Positions 2,242 to 30,601 of a stretch of DNA of 31,724 nucleotides are shown here, in pieces. The translations under genes were made by a program, and so were the position numbers. Each line of letters begins with the position of its first letter. The first letter of the stretch is position 1. The stretch is taken from positions 1 to 31,724 of IMG/VR virus record IMGVR_UViG_3300008738_000013; one strand, given 5' to 3'. The notes under the pieces were generated by a model. That model was given only the letters and a program-made list of their open reading frames with translations. It was not told the origin of the DNA and searched no databases. Source of the stretch: a virus.

Positions 2242-5200
2242 TATATAACCTCCGCATCAAAAACTGAACCAGAAATTCGACTTGTTTCTGTTTCATCTGT
2301 AGTAATATGAGGTATATGCCCTTCTGTCATTGCCGGAAAGTAAAGAATTGCTGTTCCTGTATTACCTGTTCCGGGGTCGTTTAAGGTTGTGGCACTTATT
2401 TTTTCAACTGAATCTACCTTAACAAGCACGGTTGGCGTTCCTGTGTAAGTTAAGGTAACAAAGTTAAATCTTTTCTTTTGTTGTTCTGCAAGATTATCAT
2501 ACTTGATTGAAACGGACGCTATCTTACCTGTACAATTAACAAACTCAATACTAGCCCTATTTGCCACCTTCGCTGAAGATATAGAGAGTGCTCTATTAAA
2601 TTCAGGGATAACTGAGGGGTAACTATATGTGTCTATTAATGAACCGTCACATTTAATATTGACAGTGCCAGAAAAGTCTGAACCTGTTACGTATACTGTA
2701 TAGTATGCCTTTTCTGCGGTAATATTACCACCAGTAAAATCCCTAGTTTCAAATGAAAATTTATTAGCTGTAAGTGCCCCACCTATATAACCAGCCTCAG
2801 AATATAATTTATTGTTTACACCCCTGTAATGTAAGTTAGTTGCTTTGTTTGTTGTAACACAAATTTTAGGGGTATCCCTCATATCAACTTTCCAACCATC
2901 ACTTGCAGGGGCTAGTAGATAATATGTATCATTTACGACCCCAGCTACATTCTCTGAAAAGGTTGCACTTGGTTTTGTAAAGGATTGAAGAAGTCTATCT
3001 GTTAATACAGTCACATTTCTTCCATCAAAAAAACATAACCCAGAATGAGAAACATACATTATTGAATCCTTGATTTTAGCAATTGTCTTACTCGCTCCTA
3101 CAGGACAACCATGTACAGTTGGTACCTGTACTTTTCTCATTTCATTATGAGCATTACCATATACACGGAACACACTATATTCAGTAAAGACAGCCGCTTC
3201 TCCTCCTCTTGATATTATTCCTGTAATTTGGGCATCAAAGTCTAAATATCCATCTATTGAAAAGTTATTAGGGCTTGCATAATTACTTATGTACAACCTC
3301 TTATCCACAGCCCCTAGAAAAAAGTTATTAAATTCAGTAAGATACTGTAGGTTATACGGAATAACGGATGGATCACTTATAGGCTCTATCTCTATTAATG
3401 CTCGTGGAGGAATAAAGTCTATGTAAGAACCACACCCATCATGAGACCCGACTCCGTCATCGCCTGTAACGGTTGTTGCATCCACGTTGGTACTGGCAAA
3501 TATATATTCCCTTGTATCATCACTATATGGTGAGCCTGTTACAGTATCTATAGCATCTGATGTGAATTTAACTACAAAGTGAAGGTCTATATTGTGAGAG
3601 GCACTACCTCCATATAATTTATGTACTGTGCTTACATCAGAAAAAAAAGAAGTTTCCCCTTGATAACTAACTGGTTCGACTACCGCAGTACCAGTACAAT
3701 TACCTGTGATTGTAACAGTAGGTACTGATTCATACCCACTTCCTTTTTCTGTAATAATAATATTAGAAACTGAGGCTCCTGTTAAAACTGCGGTAGCTGT
3801 GGCCTGTTTCCCTCCTGAACCAGAGGGGGCCGCTATCGTTACAGTTGGAGCGGAAGAGTAACTGTTATTTGTTCCTCCAATAGTGATACTGGAAATTGAC
3901 TTTGAAGAGTACGCCCTTCGTGCGGTTCCATCTCCATATCCGAACCACTTAACCTTCCATTCTGCTCCAGTTGGTTTTCCAGCTACCTGAACAGCTATAT
4001 CATTAGTACTCGTGGCTACATCTACAGATAGTGGGGTTCCATCAGTTTCAGAGGTAAGATATATATCTTCTACCTTCTTTACTACAGTTGATGTTCCTCC
4101 TACACGATATAAAGCAAACTTACCATAAAGTTGAGAGTTTGCGTCTTTCTTTCCAATCTTGTGTTTTACTATTATTGGTATGTTTACACTATTTGCATCA
4201 TTACCAATATTACCCACACTTAAATCTGTAGATGAAAGTTTTGATATTCCTCCCTCTACACCAGTAGCTTCATCAAATCTGGCTATACCATACTGAAAAG
4301 GTATAGGAAAGTTTTCTGTGCGGAATGCTTTGGAGTGGTGACTTGTTATATTTGCAGGTCTATTATCTGGTAAGTCATCAACGGATACAAAGGTAGGGTC
4401 TGGTCTTGGAACTTCTAGTGGGTATACATTACCTAGTATCCCATCTATTAATCTTACTGGGGCAGTATGTACCGTAAGAGAAACACTTGAACCACTTGCA
4501 GTTGCTACTTTATTAAGTGTAACAATACTAGTTCCATAGTTTATAGATTCTATGGTTGTATCTTTAGCAATCCCTGTACCAGTAAACTTATCATTCACCA
4601 TAACTTTAACAGCATCAGCCGCAGTAAGTTGAACCGCAGTTGATCCACTTGTAACAGTAGTGGCTGTAATTGAGAAGGAATCTCGGCCCATATACAAATC
4701 ATCGCTGTACTCTGCAAATGAGGAAACAGAACCAAGACTTAATTCTGTGTCATTGATTGAAACTATTACTTCTACAGAGTGTGTCCCTGAACCTGTGTTT
4801 GTAATATTAACAATAGAGCCTTCGTTTGCTGAAGATACCGTGAGGGTAGTTGAAGAAGGGGTTGTAAGAACGTAGTAATCTGTATCTACTGATAAACCAG
4901 CAGGGAGGGTTCCTGTTGAAGTAAATCTTATAATATTATTAGGATCAACATCAGCTAGTCCGTGGGCGGTACTTGTGGTAATTACATTTGTTCCTGTATT
5001 AACAGTAAAGGTAGGAGTTGTACCTATTTGGTAGATACCTGTTTCTTTGATAAAAAGGGGGTTACCTAAATCTGTATTACTTGCTACTGTACTTGAAGCT
5101 CCTGCTTGTATTACAGTTATTGGATATGAGGTTTGACCACCTACTCCGTCCGTGCTAACCCAAGATAATCCTTTTTCATAGTAGAATTGCTTACCGCCTC

Positions 5201-5351: not shown

Positions 5352-6503
5352 TCAAACTTTTATAATGTAATTGACTGCGATTATTGGTGATAGATTATTA
5401 TGCGCTGTTCCCCCACCTGTATTTGTTGTGGTTATTGTATGTGAGTGAGAGTCATTAGCAATTGTTATTGCAGGGCTATTAAATGTTATAGCAGTGTTGG
5501 TCGTTGTTGTTGTATTCGTTGTACTCTGACTATTTGTTGTCATAGCTGGTAATTCATGCGTATGGGGCATGGGGTGAGTGTGAGTAGACTCAGGTAGTAT
5601 ATCAGCACATCTACTAAGACTAGGCTCATCAGGAGAAGAATCAAAGGCCGCCATTGTGTGCTGACCGTCTCTCTTCATCAGCTTATCAAAATCACCATTA
5701 TCATGGTTGTGAGGTGAACCAGCGCCTGTATTAGCTGTGCTAACTCCTCCAGTATCAGTTGCTGGGGTACCGTGTGTGTGAGCATATGCGTGTACGTGGT
5801 CTGGTACATTAGCAGTAATAGCCGCTAATGACGCTGTAGCACCTGTAGCGCTATCCTGACTAGTTGCACCGTGTAAGTGGGCAGGAATTTGTGCTGTAGT
5901 TAAAACGTGGTTTTCTGCACCAGTTGTATCGCCTAATGTTCTTACAGAGAGGGCGGCACTATCTGCGCCATTACCTATCGAAGTAGCCGCTCCTGTTCCC
6001 ACACCTACTGGTGACCTTGATCTGAAATCAGGAACCTTTACTGTGTTTGTTCCCCATGCGGCTGAACTTGAATTACCAAAATCACTTGTTGCTTTCAGTA
6101 AATTAAAAAGCGATTGATAATCATTACCCTTGCCATCTGAGTTATAGTGAGTACCTCCATTACCAGAGGTTTCACTTATGGTATCACCGTTACAATATAA
6201 CCATCCAGTAGGAGGGGCATTCCCAGCGGCATTACCTGCATACATCCGTATTTCACCAGTAAATCCAGAGAAATTATTAAAACCACTAACGGTAGAAGTT
6301 AAGGTAAGTGTGTCTGTAGAAGCGTTGCCTATTACTGAGTTACCATTTAAGGTGGCTACGCCAGAGACAGTTAATGTACCATCTACAGTTAACCCCTTTG
6401 TACTTGTGGTTTGAAGGTTAGTATTTTCATTAGATTCAAGTACTAAATTAGCTGTACCTGTATTACTAATGTGACGGATTTCATTTACTTTTAGTGTACT
6501 CAT
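5352..6503 (-). CDS. Tail fibre / collar-domain protein with His-x-His motifs (copy 1)
   Basis: 383 aa. The N-terminus (MSTLKVNEIRHISNTGTANL and following) with short GLTVDGTLTVSGVATLNG beta repeats is typical of marine phage fibres. A phage tail collar domain follows: GEIRMYAGNAAGNAPPTGWL, then YCNGDTIS, and later VKVPDFRSRSPVG. The C-terminal half carries many H-x-H motifs (HVHAYAHTHG, STHTHPMPHTHE, DSHSHT). In T4 gp37 such histidines bind iron and hold a trimeric needle together. It ends in NLSPIIAVNYIIKV, the usual end of collar fibres. The ATG overlaps the stop of a 27-aa basic ORF (ATGA). Likely a receptor-binding fibre; the window has a second, different one at 9841-10635. Confidence 0.88.
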   Translation of the reverse strand: MSTLKVNEIRHISNTGTANLVLESNENTNLQTTSTKGLTVDGTLTVSGVATLNGNSVIGNASTDTLTLTSTVSGFNNFSGFTGEIRMYAGNAAGNAPPTGWLYCNGDTISETSGNGGTHYNSDGKGNDYQSLFNLLKATSDFGNSSSAAWGTNTVKVPDFRSRSPVGVGTGAATSIGNGADSAALSVRTLGDTTGAENHVLTTAQIPAHLHGATSQDSATGATASLAAITANVPDHVHAYAHTHGTPATDTGGVSTANTGAGSPHNHDNGDFDKLMKRDGQHTMAAFDSSPDEPSLSRCADILPESTHTHPMPHTHELPAMTTNSQSTTNTTTTTNTAITFNSPAITIANDSHSHTITTTNTGGGTAHNNLSPIIAVNYIIKV

Positions 6504-18174: not shown

Positions 18175-18202
18175 ATTTTCTCCTTAAATCTCCGTTGTTA
18201 AA

Positions 18203-18226
18203 AGTGGGTGACAAAAGCCACCCACT
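18203..18226 (-). terminator. Hairpin with short T-run between head genes
   Basis: On the minus strand, AGTGGGTG - 8-base loop - CACCCACT is followed by TTTTAAC. The 8-bp perfect stem and short U-run fit a weak or leaky rho-independent terminator just after the 176-aa head gene; it may lower transcription of adaptor and tail genes relative to the capsid. Confidence 0.6.
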
Positions 18227-18240
18227 ACTGAATTATACTA

Positions 18241-18771: not shown

Positions 18772-18796
18772 AAGTTTCCCTTATTTAATTGTGAAA

Positions 18797-18815
18797 CCCC
18801 TCCCATTAGAAGGGG
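18797..18815 (-). terminator. Hairpin between major capsid and next head gene
   Basis: CCCCT - 9-base loop - AGGGG, followed by TTT on the minus strand. The stem is only 5 bp, so termination would be partial. An mRNA 3'-end stabiliser for the capsid message is an alternative. Confidence 0.45.
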
Positions 18816-18823
18816 CTATTTAA

Positions 18824-27669: not shown

Positions 27670-28095
27670 TTAATTAACTGTTATTGCTGGCTTTTCTGGA
27701 GTTATGTCTTTTAATGTTGATTCCTTAAGTAACTGCTCAAACGTCACATTGTGTTGATGTTCTACCTTTTTCTCAGGCTGAAACAAGCCTACTTCCATTC
27801 CTAATAGCTTGAGACAATCCCTCGCCACACCTAATGCTTCAGTTGTAACTGCCTGATTATACAGATCAATTAGATCACTTAGCACTCCTGACTTGGTTAA
27901 GCCATGAGACTGTAAAAGTTCTCGCTCTCTCCTTAACACCTCCTCCTTTATTCTAGTTTTTTGGAGGAGTGCGTATCCTTGTTTACCTGCATTTGCTGGA
28001 GCATACCCTGCTAACCTAGCAGATTCAGAAGCATTACCATTGGAGGCATAAGCTATTGAAAACATTAATTCTTTCTTGGTTAATTTGTCTGACAT
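27670..28095 (-). CDS. Terminase small subunit
   Basis: 141 aa. The N-terminal half has a Terminase_2-like DNA-binding layout: LTKKELMFSIAYASNGNASE, then SARLAGYAPANAGKQGYALL and KTRIKEEVLRRERELL. The helix-turn-helix is at about residues 19-52. The C-terminal part is helical and would oligomerise. It recognises phage DNA and brings the large subunit (24525-26291), from which it is separated here by four genes and a structured gap. It is the first gene of the leftward unit; upstream is the divergent promoter region. Confidence 0.85.
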   Translation of the reverse strand: MSDKLTKKELMFSIAYASNGNASESARLAGYAPANAGKQGYALLQKTRIKEEVLRRERELLQSHGLTKSGVLSDLIDLYNQAVTTEALGVARDCLKLLGMEVGLFQPEKKVEHQHNVTFEQLLKESTLKDITPEKPAITVN

Positions 28096-28127: not shown

Positions 28128-28155
28128 TTGACATCTCTGTAGATCGGAGTAGAAT
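28128..28155 (+). promoter_or_regulatory. Sigma70-like promoter for the rightward operon
   Basis: Perfect -35 TTGACA (28128-28133), 16-base spacer, -10 TAGAAT (28150-28155, one mismatch). The start of transcription would fall near 28162, about 57 bases before the first ATG. Such a strong host-type promoter suggests early expression by the host polymerase. On the opposite strand only a weak candidate (TTGATT, 17 bases, TATGGA) is seen for the small terminase. Confidence 0.7.
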
Positions 28156-28162
28156 TTGTGAT

Positions 28163-28203
28163 CCATACTAATAAAGGTATGGGTAATCAAACTTAATCAT
28201 ACC
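28163..28203 (+). promoter_or_regulatory. Inverted repeats at the transcript start (operator or 5' UTR hairpin)
   Basis: CCATAC (28163-28168) pairs with GTATGG (28177-28182), and GGTATG (28176-28181) can instead pair with CATACC (28198-28203). The first arm begins at the predicted transcription start. The divergent location makes an operator controlling both units possible; a 5' hairpin that protects the RNA is the alternative. Confidence 0.5.
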
Positions 28204-28625: not shown

Positions 28626-28634
28626 TGTAGTAAG

Positions 28635-28662
28635 GATGCATCATTGGTATCAATGGTGCATC
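28635..28662 (+). ncRNA. 12-bp hairpin after the 65-aa gene
   Basis: GATGCATCATTG - GTAT - CAATGGTGCATC: 12 bp with one T-G wobble and a 4-base loop, starting 9 bases after a stop codon. No U-run follows, so it is not a terminator. The rest of the gap (to 28722) holds three TAGGTAT words, a small TGGC/GCCA hairpin and an AACAGGAGA SD. Confidence 0.6.
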
Positions 28663-28722
28663 TCTAGGTATACTAGGTATTCAATCTAGGTATCATGGCG
28701 ATAAAGCCAGAACAGGAGACTT

Positions 28723-28904: not shown

Positions 28905-29222
28905 ATGAAAGTATTAGCAAGCGAAGTAATCAACGAGAATCTAGAATTAGTTGTTGTTAGACCTGACAGTAAGGATGGCAATCCGCCATCAGATCGAGAC
29001 TGCGAATTGGAGGAGAAACTTGGTATTGAATTGTATAATAATTTCCCATTCCTTGCGAAGTACATGGGAAGGTATCAACCAATTGGCGTTGAAGGTTGTG
29101 ATCTGGAAGACGATCTAGAATCTGCAATAGGCACCATGTTAGCTCAAGCAGAATTCCATAGAAACAATCCTGATTGGATCGTTGAAAAGATCAGGAACTA
29201 CAACGAATCGGAGGAAGAATAG
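28905..29222 (+). CDS. Early hypothetical protein, 105 aa
   Basis: Acidic protein: VLASEVINENLELVVVRPDS, then LEEKLGIELYNNFPFLAKYM, a GVEGCDLEDDLESAIGTMLA segment and a Glu-rich C-terminus. No membrane segment. SD AAAGGAGA precedes the ATG. Followed at once by copy 1 of the two-stem RNA element. Function unknown. Confidence 0.8.
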   Translation: MKVLASEVINENLELVVVRPDSKDGNPPSDRDCELEEKLGIELYNNFPFLAKYMGRYQPIGVEGCDLEDDLESAIGTMLAQAEFHRNNPDWIVEKIRNYNESEEE

Positions 29223-29225
29223 CCG

Positions 29226-29289
29226 ATAGCTTGAATCCCTCTCAGACCATCGGAGGGATTTGAGGTATTTACTAATGAATACCGTAACC
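29226..29289 (+). ncRNA. Two-stem intergenic RNA element, copy 1
   Basis: ATAGCTTGAA opens the element. Stem 1 (29230-29241 with 29253-29264, 12 bp) has the variable core TCCCTC/GAGGGA between conserved CTTGAA and TTTGAG. Stem 2 is GTATTT - ACTAAT - GAATAC (29265-29282), followed by CGTAACC, then AACAGGAGA and the next ATG. The core sequence differs from copy 2 (29833-29902) while pairing is kept. Confidence 0.65.
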
Positions 29290-29303
29290 TAACAGGAGAT
29301 AAT

Positions 29304-29483
29304 ATGTTATTGATAGATGCAATAGCTAGTATAAATGCTAGTAACGATCCAAGTCCAGAAGACGTAGTTAATAACCAATTGGAATGGGAACAGGAACGTG
29401 AAGGTATTGCAAATGGTACCGTTTGCGATGATGGCTTCAGATGGAGTGATGAAGTAAATTTCAACCATTTATTCGGGAGATAA
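29304..29483 (+). CDS. Early hypothetical protein, 59 aa
   Basis: MLLIDAIASINASNDPSPED, then VVNNQLEWEQEREGIANGTV and CDDGFRWSDEVNFNHLFGR. Acidic, no known motif. SD AACAGGAGA, 6 bases before ATG, directly behind RNA element copy 1. Ends one base before the next ATG. Confidence 0.78.
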   Translation: MLLIDAIASINASNDPSPEDVVNNQLEWEQEREGIANGTVCDDGFRWSDEVNFNHLFGR

Positions 29484-29484
29484 T

Positions 29485-29634
29485 ATGTGTAGACTGAGAT
29501 TATTCTTTTTTGAGAATGAAGAATGGGGTTGGGCTGAATGGGTCTTGCCCTATGGTGAAAACCTTCAAAGCCATATAGACCATTGGAAAATTGGCGGAAG
29601 GATGGTTATAACTGAGCATATTGATTTAATCTAA
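29485..29634 (+). CDS. Early hypothetical protein, 49 aa
   Basis: MCRLRLFFFENEEWGWAEWV, then LPYGENLQSHIDHWKIGGRM and a short end. Rich in Trp and Phe. SD GGGAGA comes from the end of the preceding gene (one-base gap, TAATATG). Not recognised. Confidence 0.75.
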   Translation: MCRLRLFFFENEEWGWAEWVLPYGENLQSHIDHWKIGGRMVITEHIDLI

Positions 29635-29647
29635 ACAGGAGAAAAAA

Positions 29648-29833
29648 ATGGACGATTATATTGACGCATACAAGAGAGCCGAAGACGTAGCAAACGATGA
29701 GCTAAACGAAAAGAAGGAACGTCTTTACAACAAACTTTATCCTAGTAAAGACCACACCTCTGATGCGGTTCAGCTTGAGTTTGATCTTAATGTTGGCAAT
29801 GAGCCATATATTTTTAATCCTTACTGGAGTTAA
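29648..29833 (+). CDS. Early hypothetical protein, 61 aa
   Basis: A charged helix (MDDYIDAYKRAEDVANDELN, then EKKERLYNKLYPSKD) is followed by a short beta-like end (AVQLEFDLNVGNEPYIFNPY). SD AACAGGAGA. Its stop codon overlaps the first base of RNA element copy 2. Confidence 0.78.
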   Translation: MDDYIDAYKRAEDVANDELNEKKERLYNKLYPSKDHTSDAVQLEFDLNVGNEPYIFNPYWS

Positions 29834-29902
29834 TAGCTTGAAGCATATCGGCACACATTTTGCTGGTATGCTTTGAGGTATTCACTAATGGATACCGCAA
29901 CC
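29833..29902 (+). ncRNA. Two-stem intergenic RNA element, copy 2
   Basis: Same frame as copy 1: ATAGCTTGAA, variable stem, TTTGAGGTATT, loop ACTAAT, ATACCG, AACC. Stem 1 here is 17 bp (29837-29853 with 29861-29877, loop of 7), with core GCATA/TATGC in place of TCCCTC/GAGGGA. Stem 2 is GTATTC - ACTAAT - GGATAC, where wobble and Watson-Crick pairs swap relative to copy 1. It precedes the 208-aa gene. Confidence 0.65.
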
Positions 29903-29918
29903 AAAAACAGGAGATCAT

Positions 29919-30545
29919 ATGTTTAAAGACGATAACGCATTCATTGCGGAATATTGTCAGGCAAGTCCAGATAATCTATATAGATGTTCAGTTCTGGTGC
30001 ATGGTACGGTTCAACAAAATACAGAGAATCTTGATCGCATCGCAACACAATTTGACGAGGTAGGATTTGTTAAGGATGATACTCTGGAATGGAGGAAAGA
30101 TTACATCCTGCATTTCAGGAATAACAAAAAATATTATTACGATAATATGATGAAAATATTACGTAGTAAAAAGAATATTCCTGACAAGATATTGAAATTA
30201 TTTCTTGAAGCAGAAGGTTTAGGATTAGCTAAGGCAAATTTTCTTGCTCTACTAGCTACAGGAAACAAGGCATTCGCTTGCCTTGATTCAAACAATCTTA
30301 AATGGCATAAAATTAATCCCAAAATTACTGACTACAATAAGAAATTAAAGTCAGAGGACATCAAGGCGAAGAAACGTAAACAATATCTGGATGTAGTATC
30401 TTCACTTGGAGGAGGTGAAAAGTTATGGGATGATTGGTGTATAAATGTCGCAGACAAATCCAATAAATTTAAGTCAGGAATGGAAGTATCATTCAAACAT
30501 CGGCATTGGTTCACAACATGGGAGAATCAGTATCCCACAATATAG
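29919..30545 (+). CDS. Early protein with helix-hairpin-helix (DNA glycosylase-like) segment
   Basis: 208 aa. The middle, LEAEGLGLAKANFLALLATG followed by ACLDSNNLKWHKI, resembles the HhH region of HhH-GPD DNA glycosylases and of phage proteins with G-L-x-x-x-KA-x-F...C-x-D-x-HN; here the usual His is Asn. The second half is basic and ends GMEVSFKHRHWFTTWENQYP. No Fe-S cysteine cluster is seen. A DNA-binding or repair role is plausible; catalytic activity is uncertain. SD AACAGGAGA follows RNA element copy 2. Confidence 0.72.
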   Translation: MFKDDNAFIAEYCQASPDNLYRCSVLVHGTVQQNTENLDRIATQFDEVGFVKDDTLEWRKDYILHFRNNKKYYYDNMMKILRSKKNIPDKILKLFLEAEGLGLAKANFLALLATGNKAFACLDSNNLKWHKINPKITDYNKKLKSEDIKAKKRKQYLDVVSSLGGGEKLWDDWCINVADKSNKFKSGMEVSFKHRHWFTTWENQYPTI

Positions 30546-30553
30546 GCAATAAC

Positions 30554-30580
30554 TTCCTAGTAGGCAAATTCTGCTAGGAA
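30554..30580 (+). ncRNA. 10-bp hairpin after the 208-aa gene
   Basis: TTCCTAGTAG - GCAAATT - CTGCTAGGAA, 10 bp with one wobble pair, 8 bases after a stop codon. No U-run. Same placement as the other intergenic hairpins of this operon. Confidence 0.6.
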
Positions 30581-30601
30581 CATTTTACCACTAAGGAATA
30601 T

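What the first reader, a model, noticed from the sequence alone, without database searches (positions are those of the whole stretch)
29226..29902. Repeated two-stem RNA element with compensatory changes in an early operon
Seen: copies at 29226-29289 and 29833-29902 share ATAGCTTGAA at the 5' side, TTTGAGGTATT and the loop ACTAAT, then ATACCG-x-AACC. Between them the core of stem 1 differs completely (TCCCTC/GAGGGA versus GCATA/TATGC) but still pairs, and stem 2 swaps wobble and Watson-Crick pairs. Keeping pairing while changing sequence points to selection on RNA structure. Each copy sits right after a stop codon and just before AACAGGAGA-ATG. Inference: an RNase III-type processing site, mRNA stabiliser or ligand/protein-binding leader. 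It matches no riboswitch class I can recall.
Basis: partly seen in the sequence, partly recalled or inferred. Interest (0 to 1): 0.72.

Follow-up and report, generated by a model that had tools for sequence, protein, structure and literature searches.

The report
Folding RNA dividers between phage genes
Between small genes that probably share one messenger RNA, a group of uncultured phages carries a short RNA that can fold in two mutually exclusive ways; both folds are preserved while the sequence changes, and it most likely marks where the message is cut and protected, which no test has yet shown.

Summary
The two copies (29230-29289, 29837-29902) are real, and a covariance model built from one copy type finds the other at E ~1e-10 to 1e-9. 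I collected about 17 copies in roughly ten related uncultured phages. Pairing survives sequence change (98.5% of cells paired; 28 doubly compensated cells, maximum 19 in 1000 tree-preserving simulations), so selection on RNA structure is supported. Rfam has no match.

The element is more than two stems. The ~10 nt before stem 1 can pair with the 5' arm and loop of stem 2, which explains the conserved ACTAAT loop. That pairing excludes stem 2, is nearly equal in predicted energy, and is itself compensated between subfamilies. Stem 1 has a conserved non-canonical 2x2 step two pairs from its base. Every copy starts 3-16 nt after the upstream stop codon. Copies sit at junctions of reshuffled genes. 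Hairpins of similar size lie at the predicted transcription start in most of the relatives.

Best explanation (inferred, 0.45): an intercistronic mRNA processing and stability switch. The long stem is cut by an RNase III-type enzyme and stem 2 then re-forms as the 5' end hairpin of the downstream message. No cleavage was tested and the host is unknown.

The parts
29220..29229 (+). copy A, segment a (upstream flank, contains stop codon TAG 29220-29222); can pair with segment b
29230..29264 (+). copy A, stem 1 (CUUGAA...UUUGAG, tandem U.G/G.U at pairs 3-4)
29264..29283 (+). copy A, stem 2 (GGUAUUU-ACUAAU-GAAUACC); its 5' arm and loop = segment b, its 3' arm = segment c; G29264 shared with stem 1
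29284..29300 (+). copy A, conserved GUAACC tail and ribosome-binding site AACAGGAG of the next gene (ATG at 29304)
29827..29836 (+). copy B, segment a (contains stop codon TAA 29831-29833)
29837..29877 (+). copy B, stem 1 (17 pairs)
29877..29896 (+). copy B, stem 2 (GGUAUUC-ACUAAU-GGAUACC)
29897..29915 (+). copy B, GCAACC tail and ribosome-binding site of the 208-aa gene (ATG 29919)
28626..28722 (+). third intercistronic element with the same plan (long stem 1, stem 2, plus a small GGC/GCC third hairpin), no sequence similarity to A/B; orthologue in L003
30546..30601 (+). fourth intercistronic hairpin (TTCCTAGTAG...CTGCTAGGAA), core conserved in L003 and L009
28128..28155 (+). sigma-70-type promoter (TTGACA-16-TAGAAT) of the operon
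28161..28188 (+). leader hairpin AUCCAUACU-AAUAAA-GGUAUGGGU followed by AAUC, starting at the expected transcription start

Best explanation
The element is a cis-acting intercistronic RNA of three competing segments: a (just after the upstream stop codon), stem 1, b, c. Shown by comparison: stem 1 and b:c (stem 2) are conserved structures, and a:b is a likely conserved alternative to b:c. Inferred: when no ribosome covers a, a:b extends stem 1 into one long hairpin with an internal 2x2 non-canonical step, resembling the lower stem - internal loop - upper stem plan of T7 RNase III sites. The host's RNase III (or a similar double-strand endonuclease) cuts there. Segment a leaves with the upstream message, whose 3' end keeps most of stem 1, and b re-pairs with c so that the downstream message starts with a hairpin that protects its 5' end. 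The primary transcripts appear to start with a hairpin of the same size at +1. Each reshuffled gene block thus becomes its own protected message. A ribosome terminating at the stop codon would cover a and push the RNA to the stem 1 + stem 2 state, which could tie processing to upstream translation.
For: Covariation in stems 1 and 2 and cross-detection of copy types by model R1. a:b pairing 80.6% against a column-shuffle maximum of 78.1%, slid versions at most 45%, 12 doubly changed cells against a shuffle maximum of 9 (0 of 2000); own flanks beat permuted flanks in all but 1 of 5000 and 4 of 720 for six divergent copies. Predicted energies of the two states differ by 0.2-2.5 kcal/mol in 16 of 17 copies (4.4 in L009a). 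Stem 1 has a 2-pair base then a 2x2 non-canonical step in three sequence subfamilies: UG/UG, CA/GA, UA/GU. Stop codon 3-16 nt before stem 1 in 17 of 17. No T-run terminator and no promoter on the + strand in the elements. 35 of 201 pairs are G.U when read on the coding strand and would be A.C on the other, so it acts as RNA. A hairpin begins about 5-7 nt after the -10 box in window, L003, L004, L005, L006, L029, L030 and L061, with compensated arms in the first seven. T7 R1.1 is a 60-nt hairpin with an internal loop between early genes (PMC6121014). A 5' hairpin stabilises bla mRNA and impedes RppH (PMC3997798).
Against: No cleavage, RNA end or half-life was measured; host and its RNase III are unknown. 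S. meliloti RNase III needs longer double strands than E. coli's (PMC6121014). The a:b test was designed after seeing the folds, on 16 related elements, so its probabilities are optimistic. One copy (L005B) has lost stem 2 and pairs poorly with its flank. In the L009 copies the 2x2 step is replaced by a single-base bulge. The leader hairpins share no sequence with stem 2 beyond a GUAAYC-like tail.
Confidence: 0.45

Rival explanations
1. Binding site for a phage or host protein (translational repressor, antiterminator or RNA chaperone) that recognises the conserved stem 1 base with its non-canonical step and the stem 1/stem 2 junction; the two states are bound and unbound forms.
For: Conserved CUUGAA/UUUGAG base and shared G while the rest of stem 1 varies freely.
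Against: Three subfamilies have different junction sequences; the ribosome-binding site is not consistently paired in either copy; no candidate protein identified.
Confidence: 0.18
2. put-like antitermination RNA: the two adjoining stem-loops bind the elongating RNA polymerase and make it ignore terminators or pauses, as in phage HK022.
For: Two adjoining stem-loops of about 70 nt meeting at a G, in what looks like an early operon (compare PMC9378689).
Against: HK022 has one put per early operon near the promoter; here there are several per operon between genes and most of stem 1 is free to change. No intrinsic terminator was found on the + strand of the operon stretch scanned.
Confidence: 0.1
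3. Translation-gated switch without cleavage: a terminating ribosome masks segment a, allowing stem 2, and the resulting structure changes translation or Rho access of the next gene.
For: Stop codon always 3-16 nt before stem 1; near-equal energies.
Against: The ribosome-binding site lies outside both states and is not clearly sequestered.
Confidence: 0.15
4. Recombination linker: the conserved intergenic DNA serves mainly as homology for shuffling small gene cassettes, and the RNA structure is secondary.
For: The same element type lies between different genes in different phages; type B stays with the 208-aa gene while the upstream gene changes.
Against: Stem 1 cores differ completely between copies, which lowers homology; G.U pairs and compensation indicate RNA function.
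Confidence: 0.08

Closest known systems
Phage T7 early-region RNase III sites (R1.1 and others)
   Same: Hairpins between early genes of a polycistronic message; lower stem, internal loop, upper stem.
   Different: Here the lower stem competes with a downstream hairpin, the internal step is a symmetric 2x2 or bulge, the sequence is unrelated, and cleavage is not shown.
5'-terminal stabilising stem-loops (ompA/papA type)
   Same: Hairpin at the extreme 5' end, here predicted at +1 of the primary transcript and, after the proposed cut, as stem 2.
   Different: Stem 2 is internal and would become terminal only after cleavage.
HK022 put RNA
   Same: Two adjoining stem-loops of about 70 nt with a key G at the junction.
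   Different: Many copies between genes, free sequence in stem 1, alternative pairing with the upstream flank.
Phage lambda cIII mRNA (from memory)
   Same: Two alternative mRNA folds with an RNase III link.
   Different: Single gene, translation-initiation control; here intercistronic and repeated.
PeSL cassettes of T4-type phages (from memory; paper not in the library)
   Same: Mobile intergenic stem-loop cassettes at shuffled early genes.
   Different: PeSLs carry an early promoter; none is found in these elements.

Membership tests
T7-type RNase III processing site | lies between genes of an early polycistronic transcript | tested here: met
   operon position behind a sigma-70 promoter; early timing itself not tested
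T7-type RNase III processing site | long hairpin with internal loop | tested here: met
   predicted for the a:b state; L009 copies have a bulge instead
T7-type RNase III processing site | cleaved by RNase III in vivo or in vitro | not testable with these tools
   needs RNA from infected cells or purified enzyme
5'-terminal stabilising stem-loop | hairpin at the 5' end of the mRNA | tested here: inconclusive
   predicted at +1 for the operon leader; for stem 2 only if cleavage occurs
HK022 put RNA | two adjoining stem-loops, about 70 nt | tested here: met
HK022 put RNA | one element per early operon, near the promoter | tested here: not met
   several per operon, between genes
HK022 put RNA | suppresses termination through the beta' zinc-binding domain | not testable with these tools
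   needs a reporter assay
Riboswitch or other Rfam family | match to a curated covariance model | tested here: not met
   (only a chance hit below gathering score elsewhere)
Intrinsic terminator | stem followed by a T run | tested here: not met
T4 PeSL cassette | carries an early promoter | tested here: not met
   definition from memory

The most novel reading that the evidence does not exclude
A mobile, translation-gated three-segment RNA switch that punctuates phage operons: the upstream stop codon sits in or next to the switch, terminating ribosomes choose the fold, and cutting of the alternative fold makes the downstream message refold into its own 5' cap hairpin. It spreads with gene cassettes so that an inserted gene becomes an independently stabilised message.
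Probability: 0.25. Interest if true: 0.75.

Novelty: new variant of a known kind. Interest (0 to 1): 0.56.

Why it matters
It is a structured RNA class absent from Rfam, apparently with both of its folds conserved. If the mechanism is right it explains how these uncultured phages keep reshuffling small genes in one operon while each gene still gets a stable message, and it links upstream translation to mRNA processing. It would also provide portable operon punctuation parts that are testable in laboratory bacteria.

Tried and rejected
Exact pattern scan for stem 2 plus the stem 1 base found nothing because it was too strict. Distant blastn in the phage collection found no relative. TerS in genome contigs found none, so no host link. 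A closing helix P0 (AGUU...AACU) enclosing both stems was considered: it forms in some copies (L003B) but not in copy A, so I dropped it as a general feature. Most hits of the short stem 2 pattern (L035-L038, L040-L045) are chance matches without stem 1. Two regular-expression hits for the element in L009 (2539) and L082 (808) are not elements but sequence without the second stem. ANTAR-type dual hexaloop sites (from memory) were rejected because stem 1 has no fixed hexaloop. Literature searches for T4 PeSLs and phage intergenic hairpins gave nothing useful.

Full report
What is there. The window is a 31.7-kb fragment of an uncultured tailed phage. On the minus strand lie structural genes, the terminase large subunit and an endonuclease V and the terminase small subunit (27670-28095). 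From a strong sigma-70-type promoter at 28128-28155 a plus-strand operon of small genes without known family runs to the window's end.

Is it real. A covariance model from four B-type copies finds A-type copies at E about 1e-10 to 1e-9 although their stem 1 cores share no sequence. On ten copies (alignment A6) 98.5% of cells pair, nine pairs have changes on both sides and 28 cells are doubly changed; slid structures reach at most 51.5% and 6 cells. With substitutions re-placed on the tree, 1000 simulations reach at most 92.6% and 19 cells; four stem 1 pairs are significant (E < 0.05) and two stem 2 pairs are close (0.057, 0.077). This alignment was fitted to the structure, so the numbers lean towards it. 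Of 201 paired cells 35 are G.U on the coding strand, which would be A.C on the other strand: the unit of selection is the mRNA.

Relatives. Copies were found in contigs L003, L004, L005/L028, L006, L009, L039, L052, L083 and L085 (collected; searches; L085 copy read). A descriptor without sequence constraint except the terminal C and G (two pairs, any 2x2 step, at least seven pairs, then a hairpin sharing the G) gives 17 hits in 400 kb of both strands against a mean of 2.8 in Markov-shuffled sequence. Thirteen of the 17 fall into three subfamilies: I CU-UG-AA/UU-UG-AG, II CU-CA-GG/CC-GA-AG, III CC-UA-GR/YC-GU-GG. The step is thus non-canonical in each (U.G G.U; C.A A.G; U.U A.G). The other four are probably chance. 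L009 copies (CUGA-bulge-...UCAG) follow the same plan with a bulge.

The alternative fold. Folding with flanks repeatedly gave an extended stem 1 instead of stem 2. The ten bases before stem 1 (a, for instance UAGUUGAUAA) pair with the 5' arm and loop of stem 2 (b, GUAUUCACUA). This explains why the ACUAAY loop is conserved in subfamily I and why the boundary G is shared. Over 16 elements a:b pairs in 80.6% of cells with 12 doubly changed cells, beyond all 2000 column shuffles and all 2000 whole-flank permutations; for six divergent copies alone, 4 of 720 permutations reach the observed value. Stem 2 (b:c) on the same copies pairs in 96.9%. The two states are predicted within 2.5 kcal/mol of each other in 16 of 17 copies. 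The test was post hoc and the copies are related, so I take a:b as likely, not proven.

Context. The upstream gene's stop codon lies 3-16 nt before stem 1 in all 17 copies, so a terminating ribosome would cover segment a (footprint from general knowledge). Gene order differs strongly between the phages: A-type copies lie between different gene pairs in the window, L004 and L006; B-type copies stay with the 208-aa gene (also in L005, and in L085) while the upstream gene changes. At the operon promoter, eight phages (window, L003, L004, L005, L006, L029, L030, L061) show a hairpin that begins about where transcription should start; seven of them have compensated arms around a common AAUNAW-like loop. 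L009 has a hairpin too, but its -10 box is poor.

How it most likely works. See Best explanation. Shown by comparison: conserved stems 1 and 2, a likely conserved alternative, position after stop codons, absence of terminator and promoter signals. Inferred: cleavage by RNase III, refolding into a 5' hairpin, coupling to translation. T7 R1.1 is an internal-loop hairpin between early genes (PMC6121014), and a 5' hairpin can stabilise an mRNA and impede RppH (PMC3997798). HK022 put (PMC9378689) is the main structural look-alike, but its one-per-operon placement is not met.

Verdict. A real, previously uncurated structured RNA (no Rfam match), a new variant of the known kind of phage intercistronic processing and stability elements, with an unusual, apparently conserved two-state design. 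The mechanism is untested and the host unknown.

Noticed in passing
window 28626-28722; L003 about 3349-3440: A sequence-unrelated element of the same plan with an additional third GGC/GCC hairpin, orthologous between the two phages.
   Followed up: partly
window 30546-30601; L003 about 5630-5692; L009 about 5150-5200: Hairpin with conserved core CCTAGTAGGCAAATnCTGCTAGG and differing outer stem after the 208-aa gene (after the 49-aa MCRLRLF gene in L009).
   Followed up: partly
L083 reverse strand 3047-3187 versus L039 4809-4890 and L052: The tip of stem 1 in an otherwise similar element is replaced by about 75 nt of extra structured sequence in L083, showing the apical part is replaceable.
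   Followed up: no
L028 / L005 (contig IMGVR_UViG_3300009376_000016): The end of the 61,577-base contig repeats its start (the overlap begins inside element L005X), so this relative is probably a complete genome of about 61 kb and the window about half of one.
   Followed up: no
window 29919-30545: 208-aa protein without Pfam match, preceded by a B-type element in window, L003, L004, L005, L006 and L085; distant relatives in Paracoccus phage ParKuw1 and Microcystis phage Mwe-JY26. L082 encodes a relative without a recognised element.
   Followed up: partly
window 18175-18240 and 18772-18823, minus strand: Late-region intergenic hairpins (GTGGGTG...CACCCAC-TTTT and CCCCTTC...GGAGGGG-TTT) look like ordinary terminators, unlike the operon elements.
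   Followed up: no
L004 7560-8222: Serine recombinase (Resolvase, PF00239) encoded downstream of the operon in relatives; similar sequences in L005 and L009.
   Followed up: no
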